Virus record (IMG/VR): IMGVR_UViG_3300020186_000103
Coordinates: 1-20,279 of that record
From: a virus
DNA length: 20,279 nt
Strand: one strand, 5' to 3'
Position 1 is the first letter of the stretch. Every line of letters starts with the position of its first letter. Shown here piece after piece: positions 1 through 20,279 of the stretch. Both the position numbers and the translations under genes were made by a program. The notes under the pieces are model-generated. The model saw only the letters and a program-made list of their open reading frames with translations. It did not search any database and had not been told where the DNA came from.

Positions 1-96
1 GATGATGATGATGATGCTCAGGAGGAGGAGGAGGACGTTATCCCTTTTGAGATGGAGAAAGAGACTAAACCTAAAGCTAAACGTGCACGTCGTTAA
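1..96 (+). CDS. 3' end of an acidic-tailed phage protein (partial)
   Basis: The first 96 bases are an open frame that enters from outside the window and stops at TAA (94-96). The 31 visible residues are a highly charged, low-complexity tail: five Asp, then Ala-Gln, a run of four Glu and one Asp, a short hydrophobic patch (VIPF), and a basic end rich in Lys and Arg (KAKRARR). Acidic C-terminal tails are common in phage single-stranded DNA-binding proteins and in some other replication proteins, but those usually end in acidic or aromatic residues, whereas this one ends basic. The body of the protein is not visible, so no function can be assigned. It lies 2 nt upstream of the nuclease gene, which suggests the two are co-translated in a DNA-metabolism operon. 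Confidence 0.6.
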   Translation, partial: DDDDDAQEEEEDVIPFEMEKETKPKAKRARR

Positions 97-98
97 AC

Positions 99-977
99 AT
101 GAAACAGCTTGAGAGTCTTGTAAGAGTGCTCAACAAAGAGCAAGTCTTGCACAGCGCTATAGAGGATGACTATGCTAGGGAGTTTCTTAGCTTAGTCACC
201 TCTTCCTTTACTGAGAAGTTCCTCACTGGTCGCACATCCACACAGAATAACCACCAACTACGCGTATCAAGCTTGGGCAAGCCTATAGTCGAACAACTGT
301 TACCTATTCTTTTACAGAAGGACAGGGGCTTTACTTCTAGCTATGAACCGATGCTTATGGCGCAAGCTATCATCACAAGTATGGGTGACTGGGTAGAGGC
401 TATCGCCATCTTAACTGCTAGGCGACATAACTTCGCTATCACAGACTGCCAAAAAAGAGTATCCTACCTAGACGTTAGCGGTCGTATTGACTTTATCCTC
501 GACGGTTATGTCGTTGATGTTAAGTCAATGGCGGGCGGCTACTACGGGATGTTCAACAAAAAGGTGAATGATACGCGAGGGTACATCACACAAGCGGCGG
601 TGTACGGTGAAGCGCTAGGTTTGCCATTCGCTTGGCTTCTCTTCAATAACCATACACGGATGTGGTCGTGTCATGCTCTCGATGAGAGAGACAAACAAGA
701 GGCACTCGTAAGAGTAAACCGTATTGTTCCTAAGATGCGGGCTATCACGTGTATTGAGGAGATGGTGGTGAAGTTCAAAGCGCCTGACCCTGTGCCTGAA
801 GTCTTCAAACACGTCGCTACAGGCAAGCTTCTGACCCCAACCCCGATGTTCTTTAGTCGTTACAAAGACCTTTTCTACGTACTAGATAAAGGTATCAACG
901 GCTACAACAAAGAAACGTACTACGTTGAAAGGGTACGTTCACCGAAAGAAGTCATCAAGCGGTATCATGATATGTAA
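99..977 (+). CDS. RecB/Cas4-like PD-(D/E)XK exonuclease
   Basis: A 292-residue protein with the motif series of the RecB/Cas4-type PD-(D/E)XK nucleases: an acidic helix residue in GDWVEA (E100), a metal-binding Asp in GRIDFIL (D131), the D-x-K element in VVDVKS (D140, K142), and a QxxxY motif (Q165-Y169, QAAVY). Spacing and order fit the family. These enzymes usually degrade or process DNA ends; in phages they serve recombination, replication or breakdown of host DNA. The four Cys of iron-sulphur Cas4 proteins are not evident, so a plain phage exonuclease is more likely than true Cas4. The ATG is 2 nt after the preceding stop and has no clear Shine-Dalgarno, so translation is probably coupled. 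It is the last gene of the plus-strand operon, followed by a strong terminator. The fold is a confident call, the exact substrate is not. Confidence 0.75.
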   Translation: MKQLESLVRVLNKEQVLHSAIEDDYAREFLSLVTSSFTEKFLTGRTSTQNNHQLRVSSLGKPIVEQLLPILLQKDRGFTSSYEPMLMAQAIITSMGDWVEAIAILTARRHNFAITDCQKRVSYLDVSGRIDFILDGYVVDVKSMAGGYYGMFNKKVNDTRGYITQAAVYGEALGLPFAWLLFNNHTRMWSCHALDERDKQEALVRVNRIVPKMRAITCIEEMVVKFKAPDPVPEVFKHVATGKLLTPTPMFFSRYKDLFYVLDKGINGYNKETYYVERVRSPKEVIKRYHDM

Positions 978-988
978 GCGTGTTTTTG

Positions 989-1026
989 AACGCATTAGTT
1001 TTGGCGACTAATGCGTTTTTTTTTTT
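989..1026 (+). terminator. Rho-independent terminator at the convergent junction
   Basis: A perfect 11-bp stem (989-999 with 1007-1017), a 7-nt loop (1000-1006) and an unbroken run of eleven T (1016-1026), starting 11 nt after the nuclease stop codon. It has the classic intrinsic terminator shape for plus-strand transcription. On the minus strand the hairpin is followed by CAAAAACACG, with no T-tract, so it should terminate the late operon arriving from the other side poorly or only by pausing. The fibre stop codon sits 2 nt beyond the T-run. Confidence 0.9.
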
Positions 1027-1027
1027 C

Positions 1028-2551
1028 TTACATAGTGACAAACCCGTGCAAGCTATTAAGTACCACATCTGTACTGTTACCAGAGAAGGTAGCGCCTGTT
1101 GCACCGTACTCGCAAGACGTTAAGAAGTGATACCCGGCACTAAGACCATCAGCGATAAAGTCATTTGAGCCAGTCAAGAAAGATGTACCAGCGGAGTACA
1201 TGTTGGCGATAGTCGTCGTGCCACTACGTACGTTAGGGATAGTGTAGACACCATCCAAGCCAATAGCGATGTAAACCTGAGTGTTTGTAGTACTGAAAGC
1301 AACCTGACAGAACTTAGTAACACTCACAGCGTTACCCGCTAGACAGTGGATGAACTCTACTTGCTCTAAGGCACTAGCGTTTGTCTGTCGCCACGCACCA
1401 GTAGCGTAAACGTAAGCGGCACCAGCATAGTTTCGAGCCACTCTCCGACTTACTTTATTCTCGACGTTAGCGACATAGCGCCGAGCATCAGTATCTTGTG
1501 ACTGTCCGATAGTACCAGTCGTTCGTATTGTGCCGACTAAGCGACGTGTATTATCTGATGTCATGACCACAGTGCCATTGAGTAACGAAACAGCCAAAGC
1601 TCTGGTCGTGTCATTAGTCCACGTTACTGCTGATAAGACCGGTGTTGTGACGTTAGTGATAAACACATCATAGTTTGTGTTGATGGCTAGACCAGCCAGA
1701 GAAAGCGTCAGTTCATTGAAGGCAACATTAACCCACTGTGTCCCATTCCATAACCGGATATAGTTATGAATGAACGGTGTATAGAAGACGCTAGTAATGC
1801 CCGTGACCCCTGCCGTTGGTACTGGGGTACCCGTAGTGCTAGTCAACCGCCCGCCCGCGCTACCCCTATCAAGTAACTGCACAAAGTTAGTGTTAGCTAG
1901 TCTTGTACTGTTGTCGCCTTGTGGTGGTGTGAGTGCTGTCGGTGAACCCGTAAAGCTCGGTGATGCTAAGAGAGCGTAGCTAGCTAAGGCAGTGGTAACG
2001 AAGGCAGTGGATGATGCTCTAGTATTGTTACTCCCTGCTATCTCTGTTGGTACCGTTACAACACCCGTGAACGTCGGACTAGCTGACGTTGCTAAGGTGC
2101 TGATGATATTAAAGAGTGAGTCACGCGTCGCTGAGAACGTTGTATCGCCTGACCATCCACTAGGGTAAACGCTATTCTGAGGAATAGGTGCAACGACTAC
2201 AGAACCAGGACCTATCCCATTCAGTGCATACTCTTCACTCAGCCTTACGCGCCTGTCTACTTCCTTGTTCCAGACATCAGATGAGAACCTAGAGGCGAAC
2301 CCAATAACTGTCCGTTGTCCCGGCGGTGTACGTCTCTGTATGACTACCGAAGTGCTCACTAAGAGCGAAGCACCAATGTAAGTTAAGACTGTAGGCGATG
2401 TCTTTACAAAGTTGCCAGCTACGACTATGGGTGAGCCAGCGAAGAAGGGTAAGAAGTCAATGATAGTTAAGTCTGTGTCTAGGTTAGTTGCAGTTACGTT
2501 GATAGTCCAACCTGTTCCAGTGAATGAGCCTGAGACGTTTGCCGTTGGCAT
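1028..2551 (-). CDS. Tail fibre with T7-like N-terminal region
   Basis: A 507-residue protein, the last gene of the minus-strand late operon. The N-terminal ~110 residues resemble the virion-anchoring part of T7 gp17: a YIGASLLV segment, then VVIQRRTPP (69-77), and a segment ending in VRLSEEYAL (102-110), like the fibre-attachment domains that fix the fibre to the tail. Two tail-fibre repeats of the SPTFTG...AFV type follow (about 157-185 and 196-224). The C-terminal half has a phage fibre signature: LWNGTQWV (267-274), NYDVFITN (293-300), RRLVGTIRTTG (336-346), and DARRYVANVENKVSRR (355-370). The rest is probably the receptor-binding tip. The start at 2551 is 2 nt after the preceding stop, with AGG about 9 nt upstream. 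No enzymatic (depolymerase) motif is visible. The tip is the part most likely to vary with host. Confidence 0.82.
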   Translation of the reverse strand: MPTANVSGSFTGTGWTINVTATNLDTDLTIIDFLPFFAGSPIVVAGNFVKTSPTVLTYIGASLLVSTSVVIQRRTPPGQRTVIGFASRFSSDVWNKEVDRRVRLSEEYALNGIGPGSVVVAPIPQNSVYPSGWSGDTTFSATRDSLFNIISTLATSASPTFTGVVTVPTEIAGSNNTRASSTAFVTTALASYALLASPSFTGSPTALTPPQGDNSTRLANTNFVQLLDRGSAGGRLTSTTGTPVPTAGVTGITSVFYTPFIHNYIRLWNGTQWVNVAFNELTLSLAGLAINTNYDVFITNVTTPVLSAVTWTNDTTRALAVSLLNGTVVMTSDNTRRLVGTIRTTGTIGQSQDTDARRYVANVENKVSRRVARNYAGAAYVYATGAWRQTNASALEQVEFIHCLAGNAVSVTKFCQVAFSTTNTQVYIAIGLDGVYTIPNVRSGTTTIANMYSAGTSFLTGSNDFIADGLSAGYHFLTSCEYGATGATFSGNSTDVVLNSLHGFVTM

Positions 2552-2553
2552 GT

Positions 2554-5500
2554 TTAGTTACCTACCTTTTGTAGTTCTTCTGAAATAATACTCGCACCCG
2601 GTAGCGTCTCTCGACCACTCTGGACGCGCTCTTTAAGCAGTTTCCTGTCTAGTCGTTTCTGTAACTCGGGCGTGGTGATGTTGTTTGCTTTCTTGTAAGC
2701 GTCGAGTCTCAGTAAGTCAGCTTTTATTTGCAGATAGGTATCTGTATAATGCCTGTACTGTGCCTGTTGCTCCGGTGACATTTGTTCTGTAGTCAGCTTG
2801 CCAGCGTTCTCAGTAGAGAACTTAACTAAAGCACTCTTCATCTCAGTTGCTGCTCTCTCCATGTCCTTAATGGAGTAGTTAAGGTTAGCGAGTGTGTCAA
2901 CGGTTTGAATGTTCAGACCGAGTGCGTTAACGATGCGGATACCCAGTGGTGCTTTCGCTTGCGTTTGATAGAACTTGCTTTGAGGCGTTCCTAATGCCCC
3001 CGAGTTTTCGAGATGTCTTGTAAACGGTACGGACATGAGTGCGCCACGTACTACACCCGATACGGGCATACCACCGTATGTGTTCTGTGTGAGGGCATCT
3101 TTTGTACCATCCTCGAACTTCTGGTTGCGTAGGTCAATGCCTAAAGCTTGAATAGGTCTGGCGAAAAAGCTTCGAGCAACTAAGCCGATAAGGTAGTCTT
3201 GAGCACTCTGTTTCTGTCCGCCCGTTGCAAGTCTTGTTTGCTCTTCAGTCGTCCCTGCGTACTTACCGAAAGCTATCCTCAAGAGAGCGTCACCACTGCT
3301 CACCGTGTTTGAGAAGGCATCGGTTAGCGGGTCATATTGGTTAGGCATCATGGAGTACTGGTGCCCACTGAGTGGGTCATACCCAACAGTAATAGGGTAC
3401 TCATTAAGGTAGTCAGTTCTGTAAGCTGCTTCGGGTAGGTGTTTACCATCCTTTCCTTTTGCTCTGTTTTCGTAACTAATGGTTTGTAGTAGGCGGTTAT
3501 AAGCGATAAACTTCTCTGGGTTCTTCATGGCGAACCTGACCATCGCCGGGTAGTTCTGCATGACCCAAGAGGAGAACGGAAAAACATTCTTAGCGATGCT
3601 CTGAGGCACTTTACCCAAGTCATCGTACATGTAGAACCTATCATCGATAGTACGCATGAGGTCACGCCAGTCTACGTTACCACCTCTCGCTACGTGAGAC
3701 TGTACGACCGCCCAACGTGCCGCCATGTCAGCCATGCGTGAGTTAACCGCTACGAGTGAGTACGTGTTGTGTAAAAGCTTACCAGAGAGATAGGTAGCGT
3801 AGTCCACACCTTTGATGACTGTGTTGAGTGGGTCAGTACCGTAAGCCTTTGCATAGGCTACCATGTTGGTCAAAGCTCTCTTGCTCTGCAACGGGTTAAA
3901 GGTGCTCCAGTCTACTCTACCGATGGCTACGCCCGCTGTCTCGGGTGCGATGTCCTCGCCACGATGTATCAGTAGTTTCTTTAAGAGGTTTTGCTGTGTC
4001 ATCTCAACGCCGTCAACTGTAGCGTTTAATGGTTTCACATTATCGAACGCCTGCAACCCTTTCTGAGCCACTCGGTACATGTCCAACGACGCAGGAATAA
4101 GCATCGCCGGGTTGCCACCACTACCCATTGTCATGAGAGCATTACCAAACAATATCTTCATCATGTACGCTGGTGCCGTCGCTACCACGTTCACTTTGTA
4201 GAGTGTTAACACGTTCTGCTGTATGTAGCTCATGATAGAGCCAAGCTTCGCAGGAGAACTAGCTACGGTTAGTAGGTCGTTCATCTGTTCTGCTACGAGC
4301 GGATGAATAAGAATGTCTTCTGAGAAGGCTGACCCTGCTTCATCAGTGATGCCGTAACGAGTGAGGTCGATGCCTTTACTACTTACCCAACCCTTGTACT
4401 CAGCACCAGTCGCCTGACTAGCGGGGATAGACCAACCAGCGTCTAAACCATCCTTGATAGCAGTCTTGATAACAGCGGCATTACCGAGTGGCTTTTTCAT
4501 GTTGGTTGCCATACCCGCCATAGCGTCGTAAGGGTTTAGCTTCCACATCTCGTTTATCTCTTTGAATGGTAGTTGGTACTGGTCAACTACGTAACGAAAC
4601 GACTCTGCACCCGTCATGGGTAACGACTTAAAGATGCCAGTTTCTACGAGTAGGTCTAGTTGGTCTGCTGTGAGGTTCTCATCTAAATGGTTTCTGAACT
4701 TCGCCGGGTCTAGCAGCAGTTCATTTAGCTTCTCTGGTGAGATGTCTAGCAGTGCTGCACCGAGTTCCTCATGTATGGGTGCGTACCAGTTAGTAGTACG
4801 AGCTTTATTAAAGGCACCGCTGAGTGAAACCTTACCCTCATAGACCATCTTTAGAACCGATGGTTCGACATTCGCTTGCATGAACTTCTGAAAGTCCGGT
4901 GTGGCGATGCGGTTAAAGTAACCCATACCTTGGAGCATTGGTACGTCTAGACCCTGTGACAAGCCTATCATTCTAAACTCGTCGTTCGCCGCGTGTAGGT
5001 GTGATGATAAGTCCACTAGCTCATCAACGTCAAGGGCATCAAAACCCCTGTCAGCCATGTCTTTCATGAAGTTGTTATAGCGCCATGCAGCAATATTCCG
5101 CATACCCGGACTGTTACCGTAAAGTGCAATGTCTTGTGTAGTCCTACCAACTTCTATTACCTGTTGGTAGACTTCATCGACGACGGCACCCTTAAGCCCC
5201 TTGCGTTTAATAGCGTCCATAAGGTCTGCAATACGGTGAGTGCTCTCTAGTAAACCAGCGTCATCTAACAGACCGTGGGCTACTCGTTGAGCGGAAAGCA
5301 GTGTGTCACGTACATCACCAGCGAGAGTAAACTCGTTCTTACCAGTGAGCAAGCCCTTAATGATGTCCATCTTCTGTCCGAGTGTCCGCGCTAACCAAGA
5401 GCCAACACGGTCAGTCTGCGTAGGGTCAAGACGTACCATGTCCCCTAACTCTTGTTTAAGGATGGCATCTTTTTCAGCCGAGACTCTTGCTACTCTAGCC

Positions 5501-5661
5501 ATCTCCATCTTGTCAGCGTCAGCGTAAACGTCAGCACTAGCTACTTTAAGCTTCTCTAAGAACTCATTAGTTTTCTTGATGTTAGTCTCTTCATCTTTAG
5601 AGAACGGACGTTTCTTCCGCCCTTCTCCTGCTGTAGTGGCATTAACGCAAGGTGTGTTCAT
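2554..5661 (-). CDS. Large internal virion/ejection protein, polyvalent-like
   Basis: A 1035-residue protein between the 1625-aa virion protein and the fibre, the place where T7 has its large core protein gp16. I see no T7 gp16 transglycosylase motif. The middle and C-terminal part instead resembles the LPD38-type associated domain of phage polyvalent or ejection proteins: LYKVNVVATAPAYMMKILFGN (about 487-507), then a long helical stretch, then FPFSSWVMQNYP (694-705) followed by NPEKF (714-718). The N-terminal 150 residues are charged and helical, with basic RKKR near the start (15-18); the last 100 residues are Gln/Lys-rich helices. Low-hydrophobicity helices and lack of a signal peptide fit a protein packed in the capsid and ejected. 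The ATG at 5661 is 3 nt after the upstream stop and has no clear Shine-Dalgarno. Role is by position and motif resemblance; no enzymatic function is assigned. Confidence 0.6.
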   Translation of the reverse strand: MNTPCVNATTAGEGRKKRPFSKDEETNIKKTNEFLEKLKVASADVYADADKMEMARVARVSAEKDAILKQELGDMVRLDPTQTDRVGSWLARTLGQKMDIIKGLLTGKNEFTLAGDVRDTLLSAQRVAHGLLDDAGLLESTHRIADLMDAIKRKGLKGAVVDEVYQQVIEVGRTTQDIALYGNSPGMRNIAAWRYNNFMKDMADRGFDALDVDELVDLSSHLHAANDEFRMIGLSQGLDVPMLQGMGYFNRIATPDFQKFMQANVEPSVLKMVYEGKVSLSGAFNKARTTNWYAPIHEELGAALLDISPEKLNELLLDPAKFRNHLDENLTADQLDLLVETGIFKSLPMTGAESFRYVVDQYQLPFKEINEMWKLNPYDAMAGMATNMKKPLGNAAVIKTAIKDGLDAGWSIPASQATGAEYKGWVSSKGIDLTRYGITDEAGSAFSEDILIHPLVAEQMNDLLTVASSPAKLGSIMSYIQQNVLTLYKVNVVATAPAYMMKILFGNALMTMGSGGNPAMLIPASLDMYRVAQKGLQAFDNVKPLNATVDGVEMTQQNLLKKLLIHRGEDIAPETAGVAIGRVDWSTFNPLQSKRALTNMVAYAKAYGTDPLNTVIKGVDYATYLSGKLLHNTYSLVAVNSRMADMAARWAVVQSHVARGGNVDWRDLMRTIDDRFYMYDDLGKVPQSIAKNVFPFSSWVMQNYPAMVRFAMKNPEKFIAYNRLLQTISYENRAKGKDGKHLPEAAYRTDYLNEYPITVGYDPLSGHQYSMMPNQYDPLTDAFSNTVSSGDALLRIAFGKYAGTTEEQTRLATGGQKQSAQDYLIGLVARSFFARPIQALGIDLRNQKFEDGTKDALTQNTYGGMPVSGVVRGALMSVPFTRHLENSGALGTPQSKFYQTQAKAPLGIRIVNALGLNIQTVDTLANLNYSIKDMERAATEMKSALVKFSTENAGKLTTEQMSPEQQAQYRHYTDTYLQIKADLLRLDAYKKANNITTPELQKRLDRKLLKERVQSGRETLPGASIISEELQKVGN

Positions 5662-5664
5662 ATG

Positions 5665-8600
5665 TTACATGTCGCAAGGGTTTTTCGACGGTTTGTTTAA
5701 GTGTCTGTCAAGGTCGTCAAGACGTTGTGCTGCGTCAGCTTCATTCGAGAGTGCTAACTTTCGTGCTTCTATAGCTGCTTCATCACCTAGTTTAGTGTAA
5801 GCCTCAAGTGCATCGTTAACAGAAGCTACAAGTGCCTCTTGTGCCTCTTGTGCTTCCTTGTAGTTGTCTTGTGACATCCTCGCAATAAGCTGTGTTGCTG
5901 ACTCTTCATGGTTAACAGCACTGTCGATACTCTCTGGGTTATTCAGAGCTACCATACTGTCCGCGTTGTACCTTGCTGCTGCTTGCTCAGTGACGCTACT
6001 CGGTGGTAAGTCTTCGACGTTAATGCCAATAACCTTAGAAGGTTGGAGTAACTCAACAGAGAGACTACCATCACCGTTACGTAAACCGACGCTATCGTAA
6101 CCCATAGTACTCAGTTCTTTACCGAGAGACTTCTGAAAGTTAGTGCTATAGGTTTCTGCCGTAAGGTTTCTCTGCGCCAATATAGCCTGCATATCATTGA
6201 CGTGCTGCTGTAGCGTTCCCTTCCCTTTCTTCACCTCTCTTAAGAAGGTTTGTAAGGCTTTACGTTCGATAGGGTCGCCAATGTCTAACGTCGCCTCAGC
6301 ACTCCTACGCAAGGCATCACGGACATCATCAGTAGCAATAACACCAGCGTCTAGAGGGTTCGATACGTTTGGTTTTACTTCAACAAAAGTACCGTTATCA
6401 TTAAACTCTTTACCTGGCATCACATTACGTTCGACGTTGCTCAGTGCTTGGTTCTTCGCTGTTTGGAAGTTACTCTCCAAACGGATACCCGGTACTACTT
6501 GACCTCTAGGCATCTCGTTCACAGTTGCGTAGATGTCTGCGTCTACTAGGTTGGTGTCAACTAGCTTTGCAATAACTCTAGGGTTGCTCGTGCCAGCGCC
6601 CATAGTGATAGAGTTTATGTCCTCAATGAGTGCCGTATCGATGACCGGTGCTCTCGGTGCAAAGAAGGTGTCAGGGTAACTGTTAACCGTAGCCGCTAAC
6701 GCTTTACCCTCACCTCTCCTCGCCCTAGCCATCTTGTTACGGAAGACAGTAATACGCCTCATTAAGTCGATATCGTCCGTGTACGCTAAGCCCATACTCT
6801 TCGCTTGAGCCTTAGCCGCCTTTAAGCCTTTCTTATCAACCGTCTTGCTTAGCTCTTCTGCTGTACTCGTGGGGTAGTTGTTTATCTCAACACCCGTACC
6901 AGGGTCAATGTGCTTACCAGCGGGTTTCTTTACGCCTGCTACAGGCGGCTGTGGGTCTGGGTGTACGTAGTCGTGCGGTAGTTCTTTACGACCGACATCA
7001 GGTAGCGCTAACGTGTTCCTTGTCGATACCTCTAGTGACTGTTGAATGCTCTGCTGCCTAAGCTCAGTGGCTTGAGATAGATGTGCATCGTCAGATACCT
7101 TAAGCACAGTGTCAATGACCGCTTGCGTTGCCTCAACGACAGCAGGGCTTTTACCGTGATGAGTCTTTGGCAATAACTCTTTCTGTACATACGCTAATGC
7201 TCTCTTATCGATACTTACGTTCGGTGCTGCCTGCTGTCCTTGTATGGCTTCAATACGCTGTGTCAGTCCCTCTAGCCGCGTACGCTTAAAGGAAGTACTC
7301 GCAGAGTCAAACCGCTCTCGCTCTAGCATGTTACCAACGAAAGAGACACCCTTGATGTTGTCTGGGGTGATGCCCTCATTAATGTAGAACCCGTCTCTGC
7401 CAGACTTAACCGCGCTTATTGGTGTAACAGTACCAGTAGGGATATCTACAGCTATGAGTGTGTTGCCGTACTTAGTGAGCGTAGGGTCATCGTGTAAGAA
7501 TACTTGGTTGCCTTCTAGCCCAACACTTCTCTGGAACGTCGAACCACCACGTGCTTCTATGCCCTGACGACCAATACTCGGTAGGTTCTTTGCGTTAGTC
7601 GAATGGTAATAGCGCGTGAACCCTGGTGCCGCTACAGGAGCCTCAGTTATCTTGTCGAAGACGATAGGTGTTCCAATACTTTCTTGAGTCGCTTTCACAG
7701 TAGCCGTCAACTCTTGTTTCCAGTTACTCCGAACAAGTGCCTGTACAACTACCTTGCCCTCTTTCGCATCCGCTTTCGTTTGCACTGTAGGTTCAAAGCG
7801 CTTAGTGATAAAAGATGGGTCATAAACGACTTTAACTTGAGGTTCTTTTGGAGGAATAACGAGAGCCTGCACCTCTGGACTACCATCCAAGCCCGCTGAG
7901 CGTTTGACTACTCTAAACCCCTCACCGCGTAAAGCTTCTTCTGGGATACTCGCACCATAGCGGTCGAATATTCTCCGATAGATAGGGTCAGTGAGTGTCG
8001 CTAGTCTGTCTTGAAGCTGCTGCCAAGTCTTGAACGGTCGTGCACTTGTAGCTAGTGGTAAGCCATCTTCACCAGGGATGAAACGAGCCAGCGCACCTAA
8101 CTGGTCTAGTGTACGTTTCTTGGGTTTCACACCCGTTACATCTAGCTGCATACCCGGTGTGGGTACACTAAGCTGTTCAGCGAACTCGTTCAAGGTAACG
8201 TCACCTTGGAACACTTTGTTAGGAACAACTGGTACCAGAGTTTCGATATGCTCTAGCACCTCGGGGGTAAACGCTGTATCCCTTTTAATGACCTTCAGAG
8301 AAGCGTTAATAGCTTGTATGCGTCTTTCATCAACAGCCATCGCTAGGCGTTCCCCGAAGCCGTCTGGTACGTCATCACGAAGTGTACTTACTACGTCCTC
8401 TACATCTACCTTAGGGTTAGGGTTAGTAAAGCTTTTCGTAGCTCCCTTCTCAATGGTCGTGTCTTGTTGACCGAGGTTCCTCAAGACTCTCTTGACTCGC
8501 GTTTCTTCTAACGACTCTCTGATAACGGCTAAGGCTTCTCCTTTCTCAACCATCGCAGGACTCACTAAAGAAGTGCCATCCTTCACAAGTGGCTGAATAG

Positions 8601-10542: not shown

Positions 10543-10554
10543 GCTGTTTCTTAC

Positions 10555-10785
10555 TCATTCTTGAATGGGTTGTGTATAGCCAGAGGGTACTTGAATGTTA
10601 CTCTCATGGGGAATGATAGGGCTACCGCTTTCGAGTAGCGCATCGCACATCTTACAGCCTTCTGCATACTCTGTATGTATCTCTGCACGTAGCCTAGACA
10701 TTCTACCCGCGCCCGTGTCTTCATACTGTCTACCAGCGCCCGCACCGAGAGTACTTAAGTGCCTAGCTTGCTCTTGTTCATTCAC
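10555..10785 (-). CDS. Small CxxC protein of unknown function
   Basis: A 76-residue protein starting with GTG at 10785. The start overlaps the stop of the upstream 975-aa gene by four bases (GTGA), and a good Shine-Dalgarno TAGGAG lies at 10795-10800 with 9 nt spacing, so the frame is well supported and translationally coupled. It ends 12 nt before the 1625-aa gene. The sequence is hydrophilic, with a Gly/Ala-rich part (14-28) and a CKMC motif (C44, C47) that could bind metal or form a disulphide; no second cysteine pair is present. No signal peptide or membrane segment is seen and I do not recognise a family. Being within the virion operon, it may be a small virion component or chaperone for its large neighbours; that is inference from position. 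Confidence 0.65.
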   Translation of the reverse strand: MNEQEQARHLSTLGAGAGRQYEDTGAGRMSRLRAEIHTEYAEGCKMCDALLESGSPIIPHESNIQVPSGYTQPIQE

Positions 10786-13709: not shown

Positions 13710-14883
13710 ATGTGCCTAATAGCCCGCTGTACTTACCTTCCGGTGAACGTGAAGGATGTCTACTGTTTGTTTCGTGTTGTAGTGGTGCTCCCTGCATGAG
13801 CTGTGGCTGTGTTGCTTGCAGTGGGTTATTGTTAGTCCTCGAACCGAGAGCATTATTAAAGGCACCGTAGATGCCAAGACCAGCTTGAGCGTACTGCATT
13901 AAGGAAGCACCTTTTATCTGACTCGCTTGAGACTGTAGCGCCGCCTGTTGGGAACCGAACTGACTTGCAGCAGCATTGGCTTGAGAACTAATGCCTTGAG
14001 TAGCGGTTATCTGGTTCGCTCTGTTCGTTAGAGCGTCTAAGTTAGAGGCACCTTGTAAAGACACCCGAGCGGCATTAGAGGCTTGCTGCTGTCTCACTTG
14101 CTCTGCTGCGATAGCCTGTTGGTTGAAGCTATTGACACCACGGTTATAGGAGAGGGAGGAGTCTGCATTACTACTCGCTACTCCGGCGTTGAACAAGCCG
14201 ATAGCGTTCGTTTGGTCAGCAATAGTATTAGCGTAGCCTAGCTGCTGTTGTGCTACGCTCGTGCCTTGTGCTAGTGCTTGCTGCTGTTGCTGTGCTCTCT
14301 GTAAGGCGATGTTTTCTTCTCTAGTCTGCATTTCGTTGGCTGACGTAGACATATAGGCATTGTTACCCATAAGTGCCGATGCCATACCACGCTGTGATGC
14401 TGCTGCATCCATACCATACTCTACAGCTACACCCGCCTCATTTGCTTGGTTAGCTATCTGTGCTTGTGTCTGTTGGTTCTGCGCTGATGCTTGCGCTTTT
14501 GTCCCTAGTGCCTGTTGGTTACTCTGGAACTTCTGGTTTTCTGCTGCACTCTTTTCCCCTACTGCTGTCATCTCTTGTAGGGCTAACTGTTGCTGGTTTT
14601 GAAACCCTTGCTGTGCCGCAGTCATGTTATCGATAATACTTGAGTACTCTAAACCTAGCTGCTGCTGTACGAGTAACCCTTGGTTTTGAATAGTACTTAA
14701 AGCTGCTTCGTAGTCTGCGTACTGTTGCCTTGCTTGTAGCTGTGCTTTAGTGTTTGCGTACTGTGCTTCATTAGCGAGGTTACTTGCCCTGACGCTATCC
14801 CGCTGTGCTTTAGCTTGACTGTTACTTGATGCTAGTCCCGAGAGTGTACTGACTACACCTAGAACCGGTGCTACTGCTGCCAT
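13702..14883 (-). CDS. Gp14-like internal virion protein (Q/A-rich)
   Basis: A 393-residue protein with a hydrophobic N-terminus (MAAVAPVLGVVSTLSGLASS), then a very long Gln/Ala/Asn-rich helical and coiled-coil stretch (about 25-330) and a flexible Pro/Gln-rich tail. This composition and the position between the gp12-like nozzle and the muralytic core protein match T7 gp14-type internal proteins, which leave the capsid first and help build the channel through the outer membrane. Repeated helical segments such as QQQLGLEYS and QQQLALQEM look internally duplicated. A strong Shine-Dalgarno (AAGGAG at 14894-14899, 10 nt spacing) supports the start. The gene lies 18 nt after the nozzle gene and overlaps the next gene by 8 nt. 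Assigned by composition and position, not by a diagnostic motif. Confidence 0.65.
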   Translation of the reverse strand: MAAVAPVLGVVSTLSGLASSNSQAKAQRDSVRASNLANEAQYANTKAQLQARQQYADYEAALSTIQNQGLLVQQQLGLEYSSIIDNMTAAQQGFQNQQQLALQEMTAVGEKSAAENQKFQSNQQALGTKAQASAQNQQTQAQIANQANEAGVAVEYGMDAAASQRGMASALMGNNAYMSTSANEMQTREENIALQRAQQQQQALAQGTSVAQQQLGYANTIADQTNAIGLFNAGVASSNADSSLSYNRGVNSFNQQAIAAEQVRQQQASNAARVSLQGASNLDALTNRANQITATQGISSQANAAASQFGSQQAALQSQASQIKGASLMQYAQAGLGIYGAFNNALGSRTNNNPLQATQPQLMQGAPLQHETNSRHPSRSPEGKYSGLLGTYG

Positions 14884-14893
14884 CTGTTTTATA

Positions 14894-14899
14894 CTCCTT
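14894..14899 (-). promoter_or_regulatory. Strong ribosome binding site of the gp14-like gene
   Basis: The minus strand reads AAGGAG, 10 nt before the ATG at 14883. It is the clearest Shine-Dalgarno in the late operon; most neighbours have weak or no sites and probably depend on coupled translation. Confidence 0.7.
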
Positions 14900-14901
14900 C
14901 T

Positions 14902-17900
14902 TCAAAGTGCTGAAATAACTCGACGACCTTTTGTAATGATAGGCAACTGGTAGCCAGCGAGTGAGAAGTAAGCTTCATCGTAACTAAAGATGATGAACTG
15001 AATAGCATACCCAGTGCCGATGATAGGTTGCTTAAGCAGTTGGTATTTGTTGAACGCCCTCGCAGTGGGAGCAATGTCGAAGGTAGAGTCATCCCAGACG
15101 AGAGTACTGTAGCCGTAAGCGTCATATGAAATGTCTACATCTTGCGTCGAACTGTACTGCACTAAGAAGTCGCAACCAACTCTAGTTTTATAGAGGTCTA
15201 CTATCGGCTCAGTCGCCTGTGAAGCTAGTGTGTTAACGTCATCTGCTGTGTAGGTTTCTTGCGCCTCAACGTTGCTCATAAAAGCCAGCACGTGAGTAAT
15301 GCGCTTATAGTTCCCTAGGGTACCAGCGTTAAAGACTGGTGTACTGTAGATAGCCATGTACGCTACACCGAGTTCTACTACTGCGCTTTGCCTTGATGTG
15401 ATAGTCATAAACTGCGCCGTGCCTATCGTCTGAAACGTGTAGACACCACTCAGGTCACTCTGTAGGACGTTATCGATGTAGACAATGTAGATGCTGGCAT
15501 CGAACGGTGCCGTAGTGTTGTAGAGCGCTTGACCCTCTAGTGAGTCAGCTATCGGTCGTCTTGCTGTAATGTTTAGGGTCTTGCCTACACCAGGGTCGGC
15601 GAGTAGATAAACGTTACCACTAGGGAGCTTTTTGTAGTCAACGTCAAACGTGAGTTTGATACCGTTTAAGGTAACAAGGCAGTCTTGCACGTTAGTGTAC
15701 GGCGAGATGAGAAAAGCTGTGCTCTGTCTAGTTTCGCTGTACGTCGTACTGTAACCACGTTGACCCGCCTTAGTAGTAAAGGTCACTGTTGGTAGTGCGT
15801 TCGTAGTTGGTTGTGAGATGCCTGAGCCACTGGAAGACTCTACGTAGCGTTGTCTGAAGTCGATGTATCTTGTGTCGTCGAACCTGATGAAGCACAAGTC
15901 GCTAGGTATTCCAATAGCAGACCTAAAGCGAGTACAGAGCATTCCAAAGCGAGTGCCCAAAGCTCTATCAGTATATGAACCCGCAGAAAAGCTCTGAAAA
16001 CTTCCAGGGGTATCGTACTCTGTCCACGACTCTCTAAAGGTTGAGTAAACAAAAAGCTTCCTACAGGTATAGAACTCGCCTTCGACTGGATAACCGAGAT
16101 AAACAATACGCTGTGCTTGGTCGTACTTCAGCCACGGAAGTGTCTCAAGGTTTGGGTTTAGCGTCACACCAAACTTGTCTCTTATCTTAAGTGTGCGTTC
16201 GCGTACTTGATACTCACCAGAGACTGTATACGGTACAAGGTCGAAGACACCGAAGTCACTCAGGTACATCATTGATGTGTCAGTGACGACCACACACTGC
16301 TCATTGACTAAGCCCATAGTAGCGACTGTATCTACAGCACTACTAATGGCTGAGAGTGGTTGGTTAATGCCAGCGATACGAAAGACACCACGACGTGTAA
16401 AGCAGAACAAGTTACCTTGCCACTCCTGGAAAGAGATGGCTCTATCATCGGGTGTAGAAGAGACGACGACATCGAAGGGGTCATTAGGCGTACCACTAAG
16501 GTCATCAGTTATCTGATAGTAGTTATAGAAGGAACCAGGGATAATGGTGTCTGTAACCGCTGAAAAGACGACCTGGAGCGGGATGTGAGGAAAACCCCCA
16601 AGGACTACACGACCTTGATAAAGTGAAACCTGTCTAGGGTAAAAGCCATTCAAGTAGTCAGCGAACAAGCCAATACCAAACGCTGGTACGTAGCCGCCAT
16701 CTCTGTACGGCTCACGTGTAGAGAGGGCATTAGACCCGATGTGGGTTTTATTATTATTAACGACCTCAACGAATGAGGAGAAGTTAACACCTATCTGTGT
16801 TTCCCACTCGAAGCTAAGGTACAATGCCGGAGTCGTGTTATTAAGGATAGCGACAGCATTACCAATACCATCGTCACTAAATAAGAAGTAGTCTTGTGCT
16901 ACTGGGGTAGGTCCTCCTGTACGTATTTGGTTTCGCTTTACGCCATCAACGAAGACATCAATAGCCGTCGGTACTAGCGGGATGTTGTTATTTAGTCTTA
17001 GCTCTCGCCGTCGTATCCAATAGAGTGGTAACGGTGTAGAACCACTCAAGGCACCGAAGGTAATAAAGAGACTCGACGGGTTTAGCGACTGTAGTGCACT
17101 AGGAGTATAGACACCACCATCTGAGAACCCAAACGTTGTAGCCGTGCTTGGCTTATTAGTGTTAGGGTTTGAGTAACCATTAGGCAGTGCCGCTTGGTTG
17201 TACGGAACGATATTAAAGTTATTATTGCCGCTGCGAAGCGGGTTCAAGTCTGTCCTCGCGAACAAGGGAATAGGGATACTAAGGTCTGCGTTCGTCGCAT
17301 TGTTCCTAGTCGTTATCTGGTAGTATCTGTTACCTTGCCAGCGCATTGCCTCAGCCCACCACGCCCAAGTAACGATACAGATATCGACTACACGAGTACC
17401 TGTTGCGAGAGTAATGTTACCGACTGTGAGGTTGCCAGCAGAATAAGAGAAAGATGGGTTTGTCTGTCTGACTCTATCGACGTAAACCACCATGTTCTCA
17501 GTAGCCGCGTGGACATACCGAGTCAACGTGTCAGGGATGACGATAGACGTTGCTGGACTACCCAGAGTGGTAGTAGTCTGCTGCTCGGCAAACTTAAGCT
17601 GCACTGGTTTATTCACACCAGTGAACAGAAGTAGTCTTGGTTCTACTTCAGAAGTCCTGACGAAAGATGGCTTCACAAACTGAGCAGCACTGGTAAAGAC
17701 TGATGTCTTACTCATAATGATGGTGGCTACATCATTAATGACCTCAAACAGAAACAGTGTGCTCCCACTCTTAACCACTACATGGTTGTAACCCAACCCA
17801 GTAGTGAAAGGCATCATCGAAGCCCCTTGTGTTGACGTGACGCTGTTGTAGAGTAAGTAAGTACCTCGACGCTTATTGACGTTTCCACTAATGTCTACAG

Positions 17901-18054
17901 AGATGTTAGTTAAAAAAGGACTGTCTGAGTAAGGACAGTTAATAGGGTTCGCAGTAGTGTTCAAGCCCCCAAAGTTATTACTTTGAATACTGTCTTCTAC
18001 CTGTTTTGGTTTGTCCTTCTCAAACTGGTCTGCTACGTCTCTAATGCTAGGCAT
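14902..18054 (-). CDS. Tail tubular protein B (nozzle, T7 gp12-like)
   Basis: A 1050-residue, beta-rich protein that forms the tail nozzle. The N-terminal region has the gp12 signature: NNFGGLNTTANPINCP (26-41), then SPFLTNISVDISGNVNKRRGT (45-65), where T7 has FGGVN...VDGLRKRPGT. The C-terminal end also fits: GTGYAIQFIIFSYDEAYFSL and a terminal GRRVISAL (1043-1050). It is clearly longer than T7 gp12 (794 aa), with extra middle regions that probably add surface domains to the nozzle. The start at 18054 is 6 nt after the adaptor stop; the Shine-Dalgarno is weak, so translation is likely coupled. No enzymatic motif is visible. Confidence 0.85.
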   Translation of the reverse strand: MPSIRDVADQFEKDKPKQVEDSIQSNNFGGLNTTANPINCPYSDSPFLTNISVDISGNVNKRRGTYLLYNSVTSTQGASMMPFTTGLGYNHVVVKSGSTLFLFEVINDVATIIMSKTSVFTSAAQFVKPSFVRTSEVEPRLLLFTGVNKPVQLKFAEQQTTTTLGSPATSIVIPDTLTRYVHAATENMVVYVDRVRQTNPSFSYSAGNLTVGNITLATGTRVVDICIVTWAWWAEAMRWQGNRYYQITTRNNATNADLSIPIPLFARTDLNPLRSGNNNFNIVPYNQAALPNGYSNPNTNKPSTATTFGFSDGGVYTPSALQSLNPSSLFITFGALSGSTPLPLYWIRRRELRLNNNIPLVPTAIDVFVDGVKRNQIRTGGPTPVAQDYFLFSDDGIGNAVAILNNTTPALYLSFEWETQIGVNFSSFVEVVNNNKTHIGSNALSTREPYRDGGYVPAFGIGLFADYLNGFYPRQVSLYQGRVVLGGFPHIPLQVVFSAVTDTIIPGSFYNYYQITDDLSGTPNDPFDVVVSSTPDDRAISFQEWQGNLFCFTRRGVFRIAGINQPLSAISSAVDTVATMGLVNEQCVVVTDTSMMYLSDFGVFDLVPYTVSGEYQVRERTLKIRDKFGVTLNPNLETLPWLKYDQAQRIVYLGYPVEGEFYTCRKLFVYSTFRESWTEYDTPGSFQSFSAGSYTDRALGTRFGMLCTRFRSAIGIPSDLCFIRFDDTRYIDFRQRYVESSSGSGISQPTTNALPTVTFTTKAGQRGYSTTYSETRQSTAFLISPYTNVQDCLVTLNGIKLTFDVDYKKLPSGNVYLLADPGVGKTLNITARRPIADSLEGQALYNTTAPFDASIYIVYIDNVLQSDLSGVYTFQTIGTAQFMTITSRQSAVVELGVAYMAIYSTPVFNAGTLGNYKRITHVLAFMSNVEAQETYTADDVNTLASQATEPIVDLYKTRVGCDFLVQYSSTQDVDISYDAYGYSTLVWDDSTFDIAPTARAFNKYQLLKQPIIGTGYAIQFIIFSYDEAYFSLAGYQLPIITKGRRVISAL

Positions 18055-18060
18055 TTTGTG

Positions 18061-18744
18061 TTATCTCGTGCCTCTATAGGGTCTGTACATATTCTGTCTG
18101 CCAGCGACTACACCGCGTTCGCGTTGCTTTATCTGCTCAGCCATCTGGGTAAAGAGTTGGTTCTCAAACTGTGCCGTAGCAGTATCGCCTAAGTGTCTCA
18201 AAAGTGTGAGTGCCGTAGCATGTTTGACAATGAGTGGTAGGAACCTTTCTGGTACTGGGAAAAAGTCTGTAGACGCGTTGGGCGGGACGATAGTCGTAGT
18301 GACATAAAACCGTAGCTGGCTCTGTCCAATAGAACCTGTAGGGTACGGGTTAATACGTACTCTGTTTAAGTCGTTTGTGATGTTGTACCAGCGTGAGCCT
18401 TGTAGCTGTGTGTCATCGAACGTCATCAGCGGTCTGCTGTCATAGACATCAGGCGCAACGTAAGAGAGGTTAGTAAACCCAGTGCTGTTACTGCCTTGCT
18501 CTACGTTGTGGATAGCTTGTACAAAGTCTCCAAGGTATGCAGTATCAAAAAGCCACGACTGAGCGGGGAGTACGAGTTTAAGAAACGTCCATTCGCTCAT
18601 CGTGCTGACATGGTAACAAGACTCTCTCAAGTTGCTTGCGACTATGTTTGAAAGCGGAGAGACAAGCGTTGATACCTGTCTCTCCCCCACATTCTGCAAT
18701 ACGCTGTTGACTGCACTCAAAAGGTTTGTTGTGCTAGTCGCCAT
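18061..18744 (-). CDS. Tail tubular protein A (adaptor, T7 gp11-like)
   Basis: A 227-residue protein between the capsid and nozzle genes, the same order as T7 10-11-12; T7 gp11 has 196 residues. The N-terminus (TTNLLSAVNSVLQNVGERQVSTL) is the usual start of this family, whose members read L..VN.iL...GE.pV. The middle has FDDTQLQGSRWYNIT and the conserved end contains ERFLPLIVKHATALTLLRHLGD, typical of gp11 C-terminal helices. It forms the adaptor ring between the portal and the nozzle. It starts 11 nt after the capsid stop codon. Confidence 0.85.
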   Translation of the reverse strand: MATSTTNLLSAVNSVLQNVGERQVSTLVSPLSNIVASNLRESCYHVSTMSEWTFLKLVLPAQSWLFDTAYLGDFVQAIHNVEQGSNSTGFTNLSYVAPDVYDSRPLMTFDDTQLQGSRWYNITNDLNRVRINPYPTGSIGQSQLRFYVTTTIVPPNASTDFFPVPERFLPLIVKHATALTLLRHLGDTATAQFENQLFTQMAEQIKQRERGVVAGRQNMYRPYRGTR

Positions 18745-18755
18745 TGTACAGTTCT

Positions 18756-19781
18756 CTAGGTAAGAGTGTTGATAGTGTGGATAACAACTGCATGGTCAAC
18801 GCGAAACACGCGCACACCGTAAAGCTGCGACATGATAACCGCGTCTGCCAGATAGAGTGCCTCACGGGATGACTCTAGCTTAGGGTCTTGCTGGATGCCC
18901 AACGTAGCCCAGTCCATGTGACAGAGTAGCGCCGTAACAATAGGAGCAGTACCCGCCCCAGTGAAGGCAAGCGGTAACGTGGTGCCCGTGTCTTGCTTAG
19001 GCATGTAAGGAGAACCGAGGACACCCGGTGTAGGCTGTCCAACGTTACCCGTGCCGTTAACGTACCCTGTAAGGGAGTTGACACCGACTTGAGAAGTCAT
19101 GACCACAGGAATACCAAACAGTGTTCCTACCAAGCCGTTCTCAATAGGACGACCATCAGTGAACTGTACGTTCGTGAACTGGTTAACGTTCAGTAGTTGC
19201 GCGTACTGTCCAGGAGAAACAATAAGTACCCGGTCTTCAGGCGGTACGTCAGCGTTGTCCAAGATAAGCTTGGCAGTCAGGAATGTAGCGAACGAGAAAA
19301 CCTGACCAACACCGCCAACTGCGCCAGTACTAGAGGCAAAGAGCACTTGAGCCGCCGTTGCGTTAATGACCGAGCGTAGTGCTAGGACACTGTTATCAAT
19401 GTCACGAGCAATAGCGTAGCCTGCTTCTCGCGTGTACTCAGAGCGTAGAGCATACGCTGACTGCGTGGCAACAATGTCCTCTATCATAAAACTCGACTCT
19501 TTGTAGGTGTCGATGTCTAAGTAGAACTCTAGCTCTGTCCGTGCCTGCATAGTCACCGGACGCTCTGGCAGTTTGTCGTACACTGCTGCACGACTAATGT
19601 TAGGGATATGCAAGCGGTCGCCTTTCTTGCCAGCGAAAGGAAGTTTCTTGGTATACATCGAAGTGATAAGCTTCGCGTCACGAAAGCGCTTGACTTCTGC
19701 ACTCCAAAGGTCTGGAATGAATACGTCGGCACGTTGGACTGTATACGCATCTCCTACAAACTCGATACCTGGTAAAGCCAT
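18756..19781 (-). CDS. Major capsid protein (HK97 fold, T7-supergroup type)
   Basis: A 341-residue protein encoded directly after the scaffold gene and before the tail adaptor, as in T7 gene 10. Motifs fit the phage major capsid family: VFIPDLWSAEV (20-30), FAGKKGDRLHIPNIS (49-63), and DIDTYKESSFMIEDIVATQ (89-107), then a long helix with REAGYAIARDIDNSV (118-132). The C-terminal LYGVRVFRVDHAVVIHT matches the usual final beta-strand. No signal or cleaved delta domain is evident at the N-terminus, so a separate scaffolding protein is needed, and its gene is next door. The start at 19781 has AGG 8 nt upstream. The gene lies 20 nt after the scaffold gene. Confidence 0.88.
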   Translation of the reverse strand: MALPGIEFVGDAYTVQRADVFIPDLWSAEVKRFRDAKLITSMYTKKLPFAGKKGDRLHIPNISRAAVYDKLPERPVTMQARTELEFYLDIDTYKESSFMIEDIVATQSAYALRSEYTREAGYAIARDIDNSVLALRSVINATAAQVLFASSTGAVGGVGQVFSFATFLTAKLILDNADVPPEDRVLIVSPGQYAQLLNVNQFTNVQFTDGRPIENGLVGTLFGIPVVMTSQVGVNSLTGYVNGTGNVGQPTPGVLGSPYMPKQDTGTTLPLAFTGAGTAPIVTALLCHMDWATLGIQQDPKLESSREALYLADAVIMSQLYGVRVFRVDHAVVIHTINTLT

Positions 19782-19801
19782 GATGTGAACCTAATGAATG
19801 T

Positions 19802-20279
19802 TTACTTTTTAATGCGTCCAGAAGCATAAAGCTCGGCTATCTGTGCGCTGTTAGCTGCCCATTCTTGTGGGGTCAGTGCGTCTAACTGCGCTTGTGTCAC
19901 CGTCTTGTTTGCTCCTCTTCCGGGTGTCGTGGTAGAGCGGTCTAGTCCAGTTGTGGGTGACTGTCGTTGTCCTCCTCTTTCCATCTGTATCTTCGCCCAA
20001 ATAAGCTGTGCGCCTTCTGGGTTGTCTAGTGATGCTTGCAGGCTCTGCGGGTACTTAGCAAAGCGGGCTTGCACTTCTGTGAGGCGTGATGCAACGGTAG
20101 CATCATCAACACCCCAAGCTTTTTTCAAGTCTGAAAGCTGTTTATCGACGTTTTGCTGTTGCCGAATAGCTTGCACTTCAGCGAACTGCTTAATAGCGTC
20201 CTCAACGGGAATACCAAAAGCTTTTTCAAACTGTTTCTTAAACTTAGCGTTCTCCGGGTCTTCACCTTCATCGCTAACT
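19802..20279 (-). CDS. Capsid assembly scaffolding protein (partial, 5' end outside window)
   Basis: About 158 C-terminal residues are visible; the frame is open to the right edge, so the GTG inside at 20176 is not taken as the start. The visible part is charged, helical and Gln-rich (FGIPVEDAIKQF, KYPQSLQASLDNPEGAQ), with a basic, disordered linker (RGGQRQS...GRGANKTV) and a final helical tail ending ELYASGRIKK. This composition and its place directly upstream of the capsid gene fit the T7 gp9-type scaffold, whose C-terminal helix and basic residues bind the coat protein. Confidence 0.8.
   Translation of the reverse strand, partial: VSDEGEDPENAKFKKQFEKAFGIPVEDAIKQFAEVQAIRQQQNVDKQLSDLKKAWGVDDATVASRLTEVQARFAKYPQSLQASLDNPEGAQLIWAKIQMERGGQRQSPTTGLDRSTTTPGRGANKTVTQAQLDALTPQEWAANSAQIAELYASGRIKK

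What the first reader, a model, noticed from the sequence alone, without database searches (positions are those of the whole stretch)
1..20279. The degenerate palindrome RATY (GATC, GATT, AATC, AATT) is absent from the whole window
Reading every line and every line junction, I find no occurrence of GATC, GATT, AATC or AATT, on either strand (the set is self-complementary). For about 50 % GC, 20 kb should contain roughly 300. Sister words are frequent: every ATC or ATT is preceded by C or T (catc, tatc, catt, tatt), and GATG, GATA, AATG, AATA are common. The rule holds in both the plus-strand early operon and the minus-strand late operon, so it is not a strand or single-gene codon bias. Known phages avoid some restriction sites, but total loss of a target that should occur every 64 bp is extreme. 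Inference: a host restriction-like system or a phage-encoded host-DNA-degrading nuclease with a 4-base RATY specificity. I know CviJI (RGCY) and FaiI (YATR) as similar degenerate specificities but do not recall one for RATY.
Basis: partly seen in the sequence, partly recalled or inferred. Interest (0 to 1): 0.93.

Follow-up and report, generated by a model that had tools for sequence, protein, structure and literature searches.

The report
Cyanophage genomes purged of AAT-core words
A virus of filamentous cyanobacteria has erased every copy of five four-letter DNA words from its genome, and its relatives have erased related words, up to the whole three-letter word AAT, which points to a DNA-cutting enzyme with an unusually short target, possibly made by the viruses themselves.

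Summary
Confirmed: GATC, GATT, AATC and AATT are all absent from the 20,279-base window (0 observed; 142±12 expected by Markov, 231±11 by codon shuffle). GGCC is absent too. The window is half of a Saffermanviridae cyanophage (A-4L/Pf-WMP3 family).

RATY is probably not one unit. In relatives its parts come and go separately. GATC and GGCC loss is ordinary palindrome avoidance. The unusual part has an AAT core and is not palindromic: AATC/GATT is lost in A-4L and others, AATC plus AATT in the window, and the whole trinucleotide AAT/ATT in five 42-kb Wumptrevirus genomes (4-8 copies, about 1,600 expected). Codon-boundary analysis shows the constraint acts on double-stranded DNA.

The loss follows phage lineage, not host. 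Other phages of the same hosts keep AAT and AATC, although nearly all of them lose GGWCC. Of 38 A-4L protein families, only two occur in avoiders and in none of seven non-avoiders: a DUF5664 protein and a small protein that models as a PD-(D/E)XK nuclease.

My leading but unproven model is a phage-encoded nuclease with an AAT-type target, with self-immunity by purging the sites. Host restriction in unsampled natural hosts is equally live.

The parts
1..20279 (.). Stretch free of GATC, GATT, AATC, AATT and GGCC on both strands
   Evidence: exact counts and three nulls
99..977 (+). Cas4-like/RecB-family exonuclease, early operon; present in avoiders and non-avoiders alike, so not the likely cause
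   Evidence: PHROG 1990 E 5e-12; family census
1028..2551 (-). tail fibre protein
   Evidence: PHROG 22682 E 2.5e-54
2554..5661 (-). tail fibre / host-specificity protein
   Evidence: PHROG 19395 E 1e-157
5665..10542 (-). large virion protein, 1625 aa, counterpart of the A-4L 1717-aa tail protein
   Evidence: PHROG 33290 on the C-terminal part; family census
10782..13709 (-). internal virion protein with peptidase domain
   Evidence: PHROG 21656 E 5e-108
13702..14883 (-). internal virion protein
   Evidence: PHROG 35077; counterpart of A4L_29
14902..18054 (-). tail tubular protein B; used for the tree
   Evidence: PHROG 21185 E 2e-287; tree
18061..18744 (-). tail tubular protein A
   Evidence: PHROG 10775 E 9e-27
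18756..19781 (-). major capsid protein; 82% identical to G001
   Evidence: PHROG 267 E 9e-55; alignment A1
19802..20176 (-). scaffold protein, C-terminal part (cut by the window end)
   Evidence: PHROG 19777 E 6e-20

Best explanation
Every RATY and GGCC word has been removed by selection on double-stranded DNA by sequence-specific endonucleases (shown as far as composition can show it). Two layers are superimposed (well supported). Layer one is classical palindrome avoidance of host restriction targets: GGCC, GATC and GGWCC. Layer two is an AAT-core, non-palindromic target specific to this phage family: AATY in the window and partly in G001, AATC in A-4L, G002 and L017, and AAT in the Wumptrevirus genomes and G005. 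I propose (inferred, not shown) that layer two comes from an early-expressed small phage protein of the WMP3_05/A4L_11 family that models as a PD-(D/E)XK nuclease. It would cut or nick the host chromosome, or a competing phage, at a 3-4 bp AAT-type site every 30-130 bp. The phage would have no methyltransferase and would be immune only because its own genome holds no sites. The window's copy of this gene would lie in the half of the genome that is not in the contig.
For: Zero counts with strong nulls, and codon-boundary compensation in the window. Independent loss of each word in relatives. Wumptrevirus genomes hold 4-8 AAT+ATT against about 1,600 expected. Pf-WMP3 coding sequence holds 3 against about 670 expected over all three phases. 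Unrelated contigs with T7-like capsids strongly lose almost only palindromes. The pattern follows lineage, not host. Cyanophage PP (AAT+ATT 4, GATC 91) and Lbo240-yong1 (AAT+ATT 614 on one strand, GATC 0) both grow on L. boryana FACHB-240 (PMC10140849). The unrelated L. boryana myophage JY16 keeps AAT and GATC yet is depleted in GGWCC. A-4L lyses Nostoc 7120 (PMC12507012), but the Nostoc/Anabaena 7120 phages A1, N1 and Elbi keep AATC and GATC and lack GGWCC. Of 38 A-4L families only A4L_11 (in 8 of 9 avoiders) and A4L_20 (DUF5664, in 7 of 9) are found across avoider lineages and in 0 of 7 non-avoiders. Members carry G-x3-E ... DIDxYV ... xxK. Two members weakly hit MjaI restriction endonuclease (E 0.0035 and 0.0062) and one weakly hits PADLOC REase_II (E 0.001). 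A model of the G001 member matches I-Ssp6803I (E 5.7e-4), and Eco15I-N, Hjc and other PD-(D/E)XK nucleases (Z about 8). It is an early gene (position 3184 of 43,249 in Pf-WMP3).
Against: A distant homolog (27% identity) sits in Lbo402-yong5, which keeps AATC (335 against 213 expected), although it lacks GATC and GGCC. G004 is depleted in AATC (20.5 of 221) without a detectable homolog. The tree allows only about two independent contrasts, so the association is not significant. GATC loss also follows lineage rather than host in lineages without the nuclease, so lineage-tracking alone does not prove a phage cause. The fold could equally be a Holliday-junction resolvase. The model of the Pf-WMP3 member is poor (pLDDT 52). 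The window's own copy was not found.
Confidence: 0.4

Rival explanations
1. Host restriction-modification in the natural (unsampled) hosts of each lineage recognises AAT, AATC or AATY, as well as GATC and GGCC. The phages escape by losing the sites, as T7-like phages do for other targets.
For: Restriction avoidance is the established cause of missing words. GGCC and GATC behave that way here and in unrelated phages. Bloom-forming cyanobacteria carry unusually many R-M systems (PMC8262939). GATC avoidance also follows phage lineage. G004 and yong5 break the nuclease association.
Against: Phages that share the tested hosts keep AAT, AATC and GATC while losing GGWCC, although some of those phages encode their own methyltransferases. 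A 3-bp host restriction target has no bacterial precedent that I know of. Wumptrevirus isolates from the USA and China show the same purge.
Confidence: 0.4
2. One enzyme with the symmetric degenerate specificity RATY acts on the window/G001 clade.
For: All four RATY words are absent from the window. In the sister G001, GATC is 1, AATC/GATT 0 and AATT 23 of 204.
Against: The parts are lost separately in every other lineage. GATC loss alone is common in unrelated phages. The partial AATT loss in G001 suggests AATC and AATT have different histories.
Confidence: 0.12
3. Mutational or codon bias, or an assembly artefact.
For: None beyond the low AAAT count.
Against: Zero counts in all frames and both strands, compensated at codon boundaries. 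The same words are absent in three contigs, and related losses are seen in published genomes. Host-like DNA next to phage G002 has normal AATC density.
Confidence: 0.01
4. Avoidance of a CRISPR protospacer-adjacent motif.
For: PAM depletion in phages has been reported (PMC4246573).
Against: CRISPR escape needs change only at targeted protospacers and could not purge hundreds of 3-mers to zero.
Confidence: 0.02

Closest known systems
Restriction-site avoidance in phages (for example GATC and GGCC in T7-like phages)
   Same: Short words brought to zero by selection; GATC, GGCC and GGWCC loss here is of this kind
   Different: Classical cases are palindromes of 4-6 bp. Here non-palindromic AATC/GATT and a whole trinucleotide AAT/ATT are lost
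Chlorella-virus short-specificity nucleases (Nt.CviPII /CCD, Nt.CviQXI R/AG, CviJI RGCY; PMC7019647)
   Same: Virus-encoded enzymes with about 3 bp of information; packaged viral restriction enzymes are presumed to degrade host DNA
   Different: Chloroviruses are rich in DNA methyltransferases. Here no methyltransferase was seen among the annotated genes of the avoider genomes examined, and sites are purged instead. The target is AAT-based. No biochemistry exists
MjaI-type and other small PD-(D/E)XK restriction enzymes; I-Ssp6803I; Hjc resolvases
   Same: Predicted fold and motif order
   Different: Sequence similarity is weak (E 0.003-0.006), no methyltransferase is linked, and specificity is untested
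Phage PAM depletion (PMC4246573)
   Same: Non-palindromic short motifs under-represented in phages
   Different: There the depletion is statistical, while here it is total

Membership tests
Saffermanviridae (freshwater T7-like cyanophages) | Shared virion gene block with A-4L and Pf-WMP3 (tail tubular B, capsid, internal proteins) | tested here: met
   tblastn hits to 22 phage records, best A-4L 41.7% over 99%; tree
Type II restriction-site avoidance | Avoided word is a palindrome | tested here: inconclusive
   GATC, AATT and GGCC are palindromes, but AATC/GATT and AAT are not
Type II restriction-site avoidance | Unrelated phages of the same host avoid the same word | tested here: not met
   AAT/AATC kept in JY16, A1, N1 and Elbi; met for GGWCC. 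The hosts tested are those of relatives; the window's own host is unknown
Single RATY-specific nuclease | All four words avoided together in relatives | tested here: not met
   words vary independently
PD-(D/E)XK nuclease superfamily (candidate protein) | Fold with alpha helix then beta sheet, and E...D...xxK motif | tested here: met
   motif in the alignments; G001 model pLDDT 69.5, matches only moderate, top E 5.7e-4 and Z about 8
Type II restriction endonuclease (candidate protein) | Sequence-specific cleavage with a cognate methyltransferase | not testable with these tools
   weak profile hits only

The most novel reading that the evidence does not exclude
These phages encode a methyltransferase-free nuclease whose 3-4 bp AAT-core target they have erased from their entire 42-kb genomes. 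Self versus non-self is thus encoded by word content alone, and the target has evolved within one phage family (AAT, AATC, AATY).
Probability: 0.33. Interest if true: 0.92.

Novelty: new variant of a known kind. Interest (0 to 1): 0.75.

Why it matters
A genome can apparently discard a whole trinucleotide in every reading frame. Whatever enforces that must recognise about 3 bp of DNA, shorter than any bacterial restriction target I know of. If it is the phage's own nuclease, it is a new way to tell self from non-self and a source of ultra-frequent cutters. If it is a host system, filamentous cyanobacteria hold an undescribed short-target defence. Either way the genes to test are named and the phages are in culture collections.

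Tried and rejected
Codon or composition bias: rejected by codon shuffle, Markov simulation and codon-boundary counts. One RATY unit: rejected as a general rule. RNA-level target: rejected because AAT and ATT are both absent from both strands and all phases. The Cas4-like gene as cause: found in non-avoiders too. DUF5664 (A4L_20) also tracks avoidance but is a nucleotide-hydrolase-like domain, so kept only as a second associate. Prediction that a distant homolog implies AATx loss: failed for Lbo402-yong5. Bacterial homologs of the nuclease: 390 cyanobacterial genomes gave only weak hits, mostly to generic Mrr-like PD-(D/E)XK proteins. PDB sequence search: nothing useful. Search for the missing half of the window's genome: not found. 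Model of the Pf-WMP3 member: too poor to search with. Literature searches found no report of the AAT loss; the library is open-access only.
Full report
Observation. The window holds no GATC, GATT, AATC or AATT. Expectation is 142±12 under an order-2 Markov model, 231±11 under within-gene synonymous codon shuffling and 337 from base composition. GGCC is also absent, so exactly five 4-mers are missing. The near-identical contigs L001 and L002 also have no RATY word, and L001, which runs about 5.4 kb past the window's end, lacks the same five words. Codon choice bends around the rule at codon boundaries: Ile is ATA in 45 of 45 cases after a purine-ending codon and ATT/ATC in 259 of 276 after a pyrimidine-ending codon, and Asp/Asn before a pyrimidine-starting codon is GAC/AAC in 230 of 230. 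This is selection on DNA, not codon preference.

What the window is. It is an IMG/VR fragment holding a Cas4-like exonuclease on the plus strand and a minus-strand virion block. Its best isolate match is Anabaena phage A-4L (41.7% over tail tubular protein B), so it belongs with Saffermanviridae. The sister contig is G001 (capsid 82% identical).

RATY falls apart in relatives. A-4L (41.7 kb): GATC 0, AATC/GATT 0, AATT 121, GGCC 0. L017: the same pattern except that GGCC is kept. G002: AATC/GATT only, with GATC and AATT present. G001: AATC 0, GATC 1, AATT 23 of 204. TR020, Pf-WMP4, Lbo240-yong1, LPP-1 and JingP1: GATC 0-3 but AATC not depleted to any such degree. Pf-WMP3, PP, LPP-2, Lbo-JY12 and Lsp-JY17: GATC kept (80-102), but AAT+ATT falls to 4-8 copies against about 1,600. 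G005, 30.6 kb, does the same. In Pf-WMP3 coding sequence 3 AAT/ATT remain against about 670 expected over all three phases, and Asn is 559 AAC to 2 AAT. GATC and GGCC losses are widespread: contigs found through a T7-like capsid search lose GATC, GGCC, CCGG, CGCG, GCGC, ACGT or TCGA, almost always palindromes. The AAT-core losses were seen only in this phage family. The best reading of the window is therefore GATC loss plus GGCC loss plus AATY loss.

Host or phage. If a host enzyme set the pattern, unrelated phages of that host should share it. GGWCC passes this test: it is missing or rare in phages of L. boryana and of Nostoc/Anabaena 7120. AAT, AATC and GATC do not pass. PP and Lbo240-yong1 both infect L. 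boryana FACHB-240 (PMC10140849) with opposite patterns. The L. boryana myophage JY16 keeps AAT and GATC. A-4L lyses Nostoc 7120 (PMC12507012), but A1, N1 and Elbi from the same host keep AATC and GATC. Caveats: some of these phages carry methyltransferases, natural hosts may differ, and GATC loss also follows lineage in phages without the candidate nuclease.

Candidate agent. I tested each of 38 A-4L families by iterated profile search. Leaving aside families found only in A-4L itself or its closest relatives, two occur in avoiders and in none of the seven non-avoiders: A4L_11/WMP3_05 (8 of 9 avoiders) and A4L_20, a DUF5664 protein (7 of 9; G001 and G002 lack that genome region). A4L_11/WMP3_05 is a 181-196 aa early protein with G-x3-E, DIDxYV and xxK motifs. 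Two members weakly match MjaI restriction endonuclease and one weakly matches a type II restriction-enzyme model. A model of the G001 member (pLDDT 69.5, pTM 0.70) matches I-Ssp6803I, Eco15I-N, Hjc and other PD-(D/E)XK nucleases. The model of the Pf-WMP3 member is too weak to use.

Limits. The association rests on about two independent contrasts. G004 is AATC-depleted without the gene. Lbo402-yong5 has a distant homolog but keeps AATC. The window's missing half was not found. I therefore give the phage-nuclease model and host restriction in unsampled hosts about equal weight.

Mechanism if true (inferred). The nuclease is made early, cuts or nicks host DNA at an AAT-type site every few tens of bases, and spares the phage because the phage has no sites. 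The few conserved remaining AAT sites of the Wumptrevirus genomes all lie in the first 3.3 kb of the early region, and one sits in the ribosome-binding site of the nuclease gene itself in all five. Whether that site regulates the gene is unknown.

Novelty. Missing palindromes are known. Total loss of a non-palindromic 4-mer, and of a trinucleotide, across whole genomes was not found in the open literature searched. The nearest biochemical parallel is the chlorovirus enzymes with about 3 bp targets (PMC7019647), which are paired with methyltransferases.

Noticed in passing
window 1-20279: GGCC is also totally absent (about 36 expected by codon shuffle) and GGACC/GGTCC (AvaII) is depleted (1.5 per strand against about 18).
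   Followed up: yes
window 1-20279: AAAT is low (8 against 35 by Markov), and AAAAT and CGCGG are the only absent 5-mers that hold no absent 4-mer.
   Followed up: no
L029:3174, L032:3282, L033:3184, L035:3034, L028:35316: One of the few AAT sites left in the Wumptrevirus genomes lies in the ribosome-binding site (ggaggAATacttgagATG) of the candidate nuclease gene, conserved in all five.
   Followed up: partly
L029:224, 752, 1975, 3174 and counterparts: The conserved residual AAT sites are all within the leftmost 3.3 kb, the early region.
   Followed up: partly
L038:1-1264 (G002, IMGVR_UViG_2909936442): The contig's left 1.2 kb encodes WD40 repeats with normal AATC density, so it looks like cyanobacterial DNA joined to an A-4L-like phage: a provirus or an assembly join.
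   Followed up: partly
L025:12780-13076; L029:12316-13395: A DUF5664 (PF18909, dATP/dGTP diphosphohydrolase-like) protein also occurs only in word-avoiding members of the family.
   Followed up: partly
L058:38418-38987 (Lbo402-yong5): An unrelated Leptolyngbya myophage carries a distant homolog of the nuclease and has zero GATC, GGCC and GGWCC.
   Followed up: partly
L055/L057 (PP438410), L052 (PP438407): Records named as Nostoc and Dolichospermum phages have 67% and 63% GC, odd for phages of those hosts.
   Followed up: no
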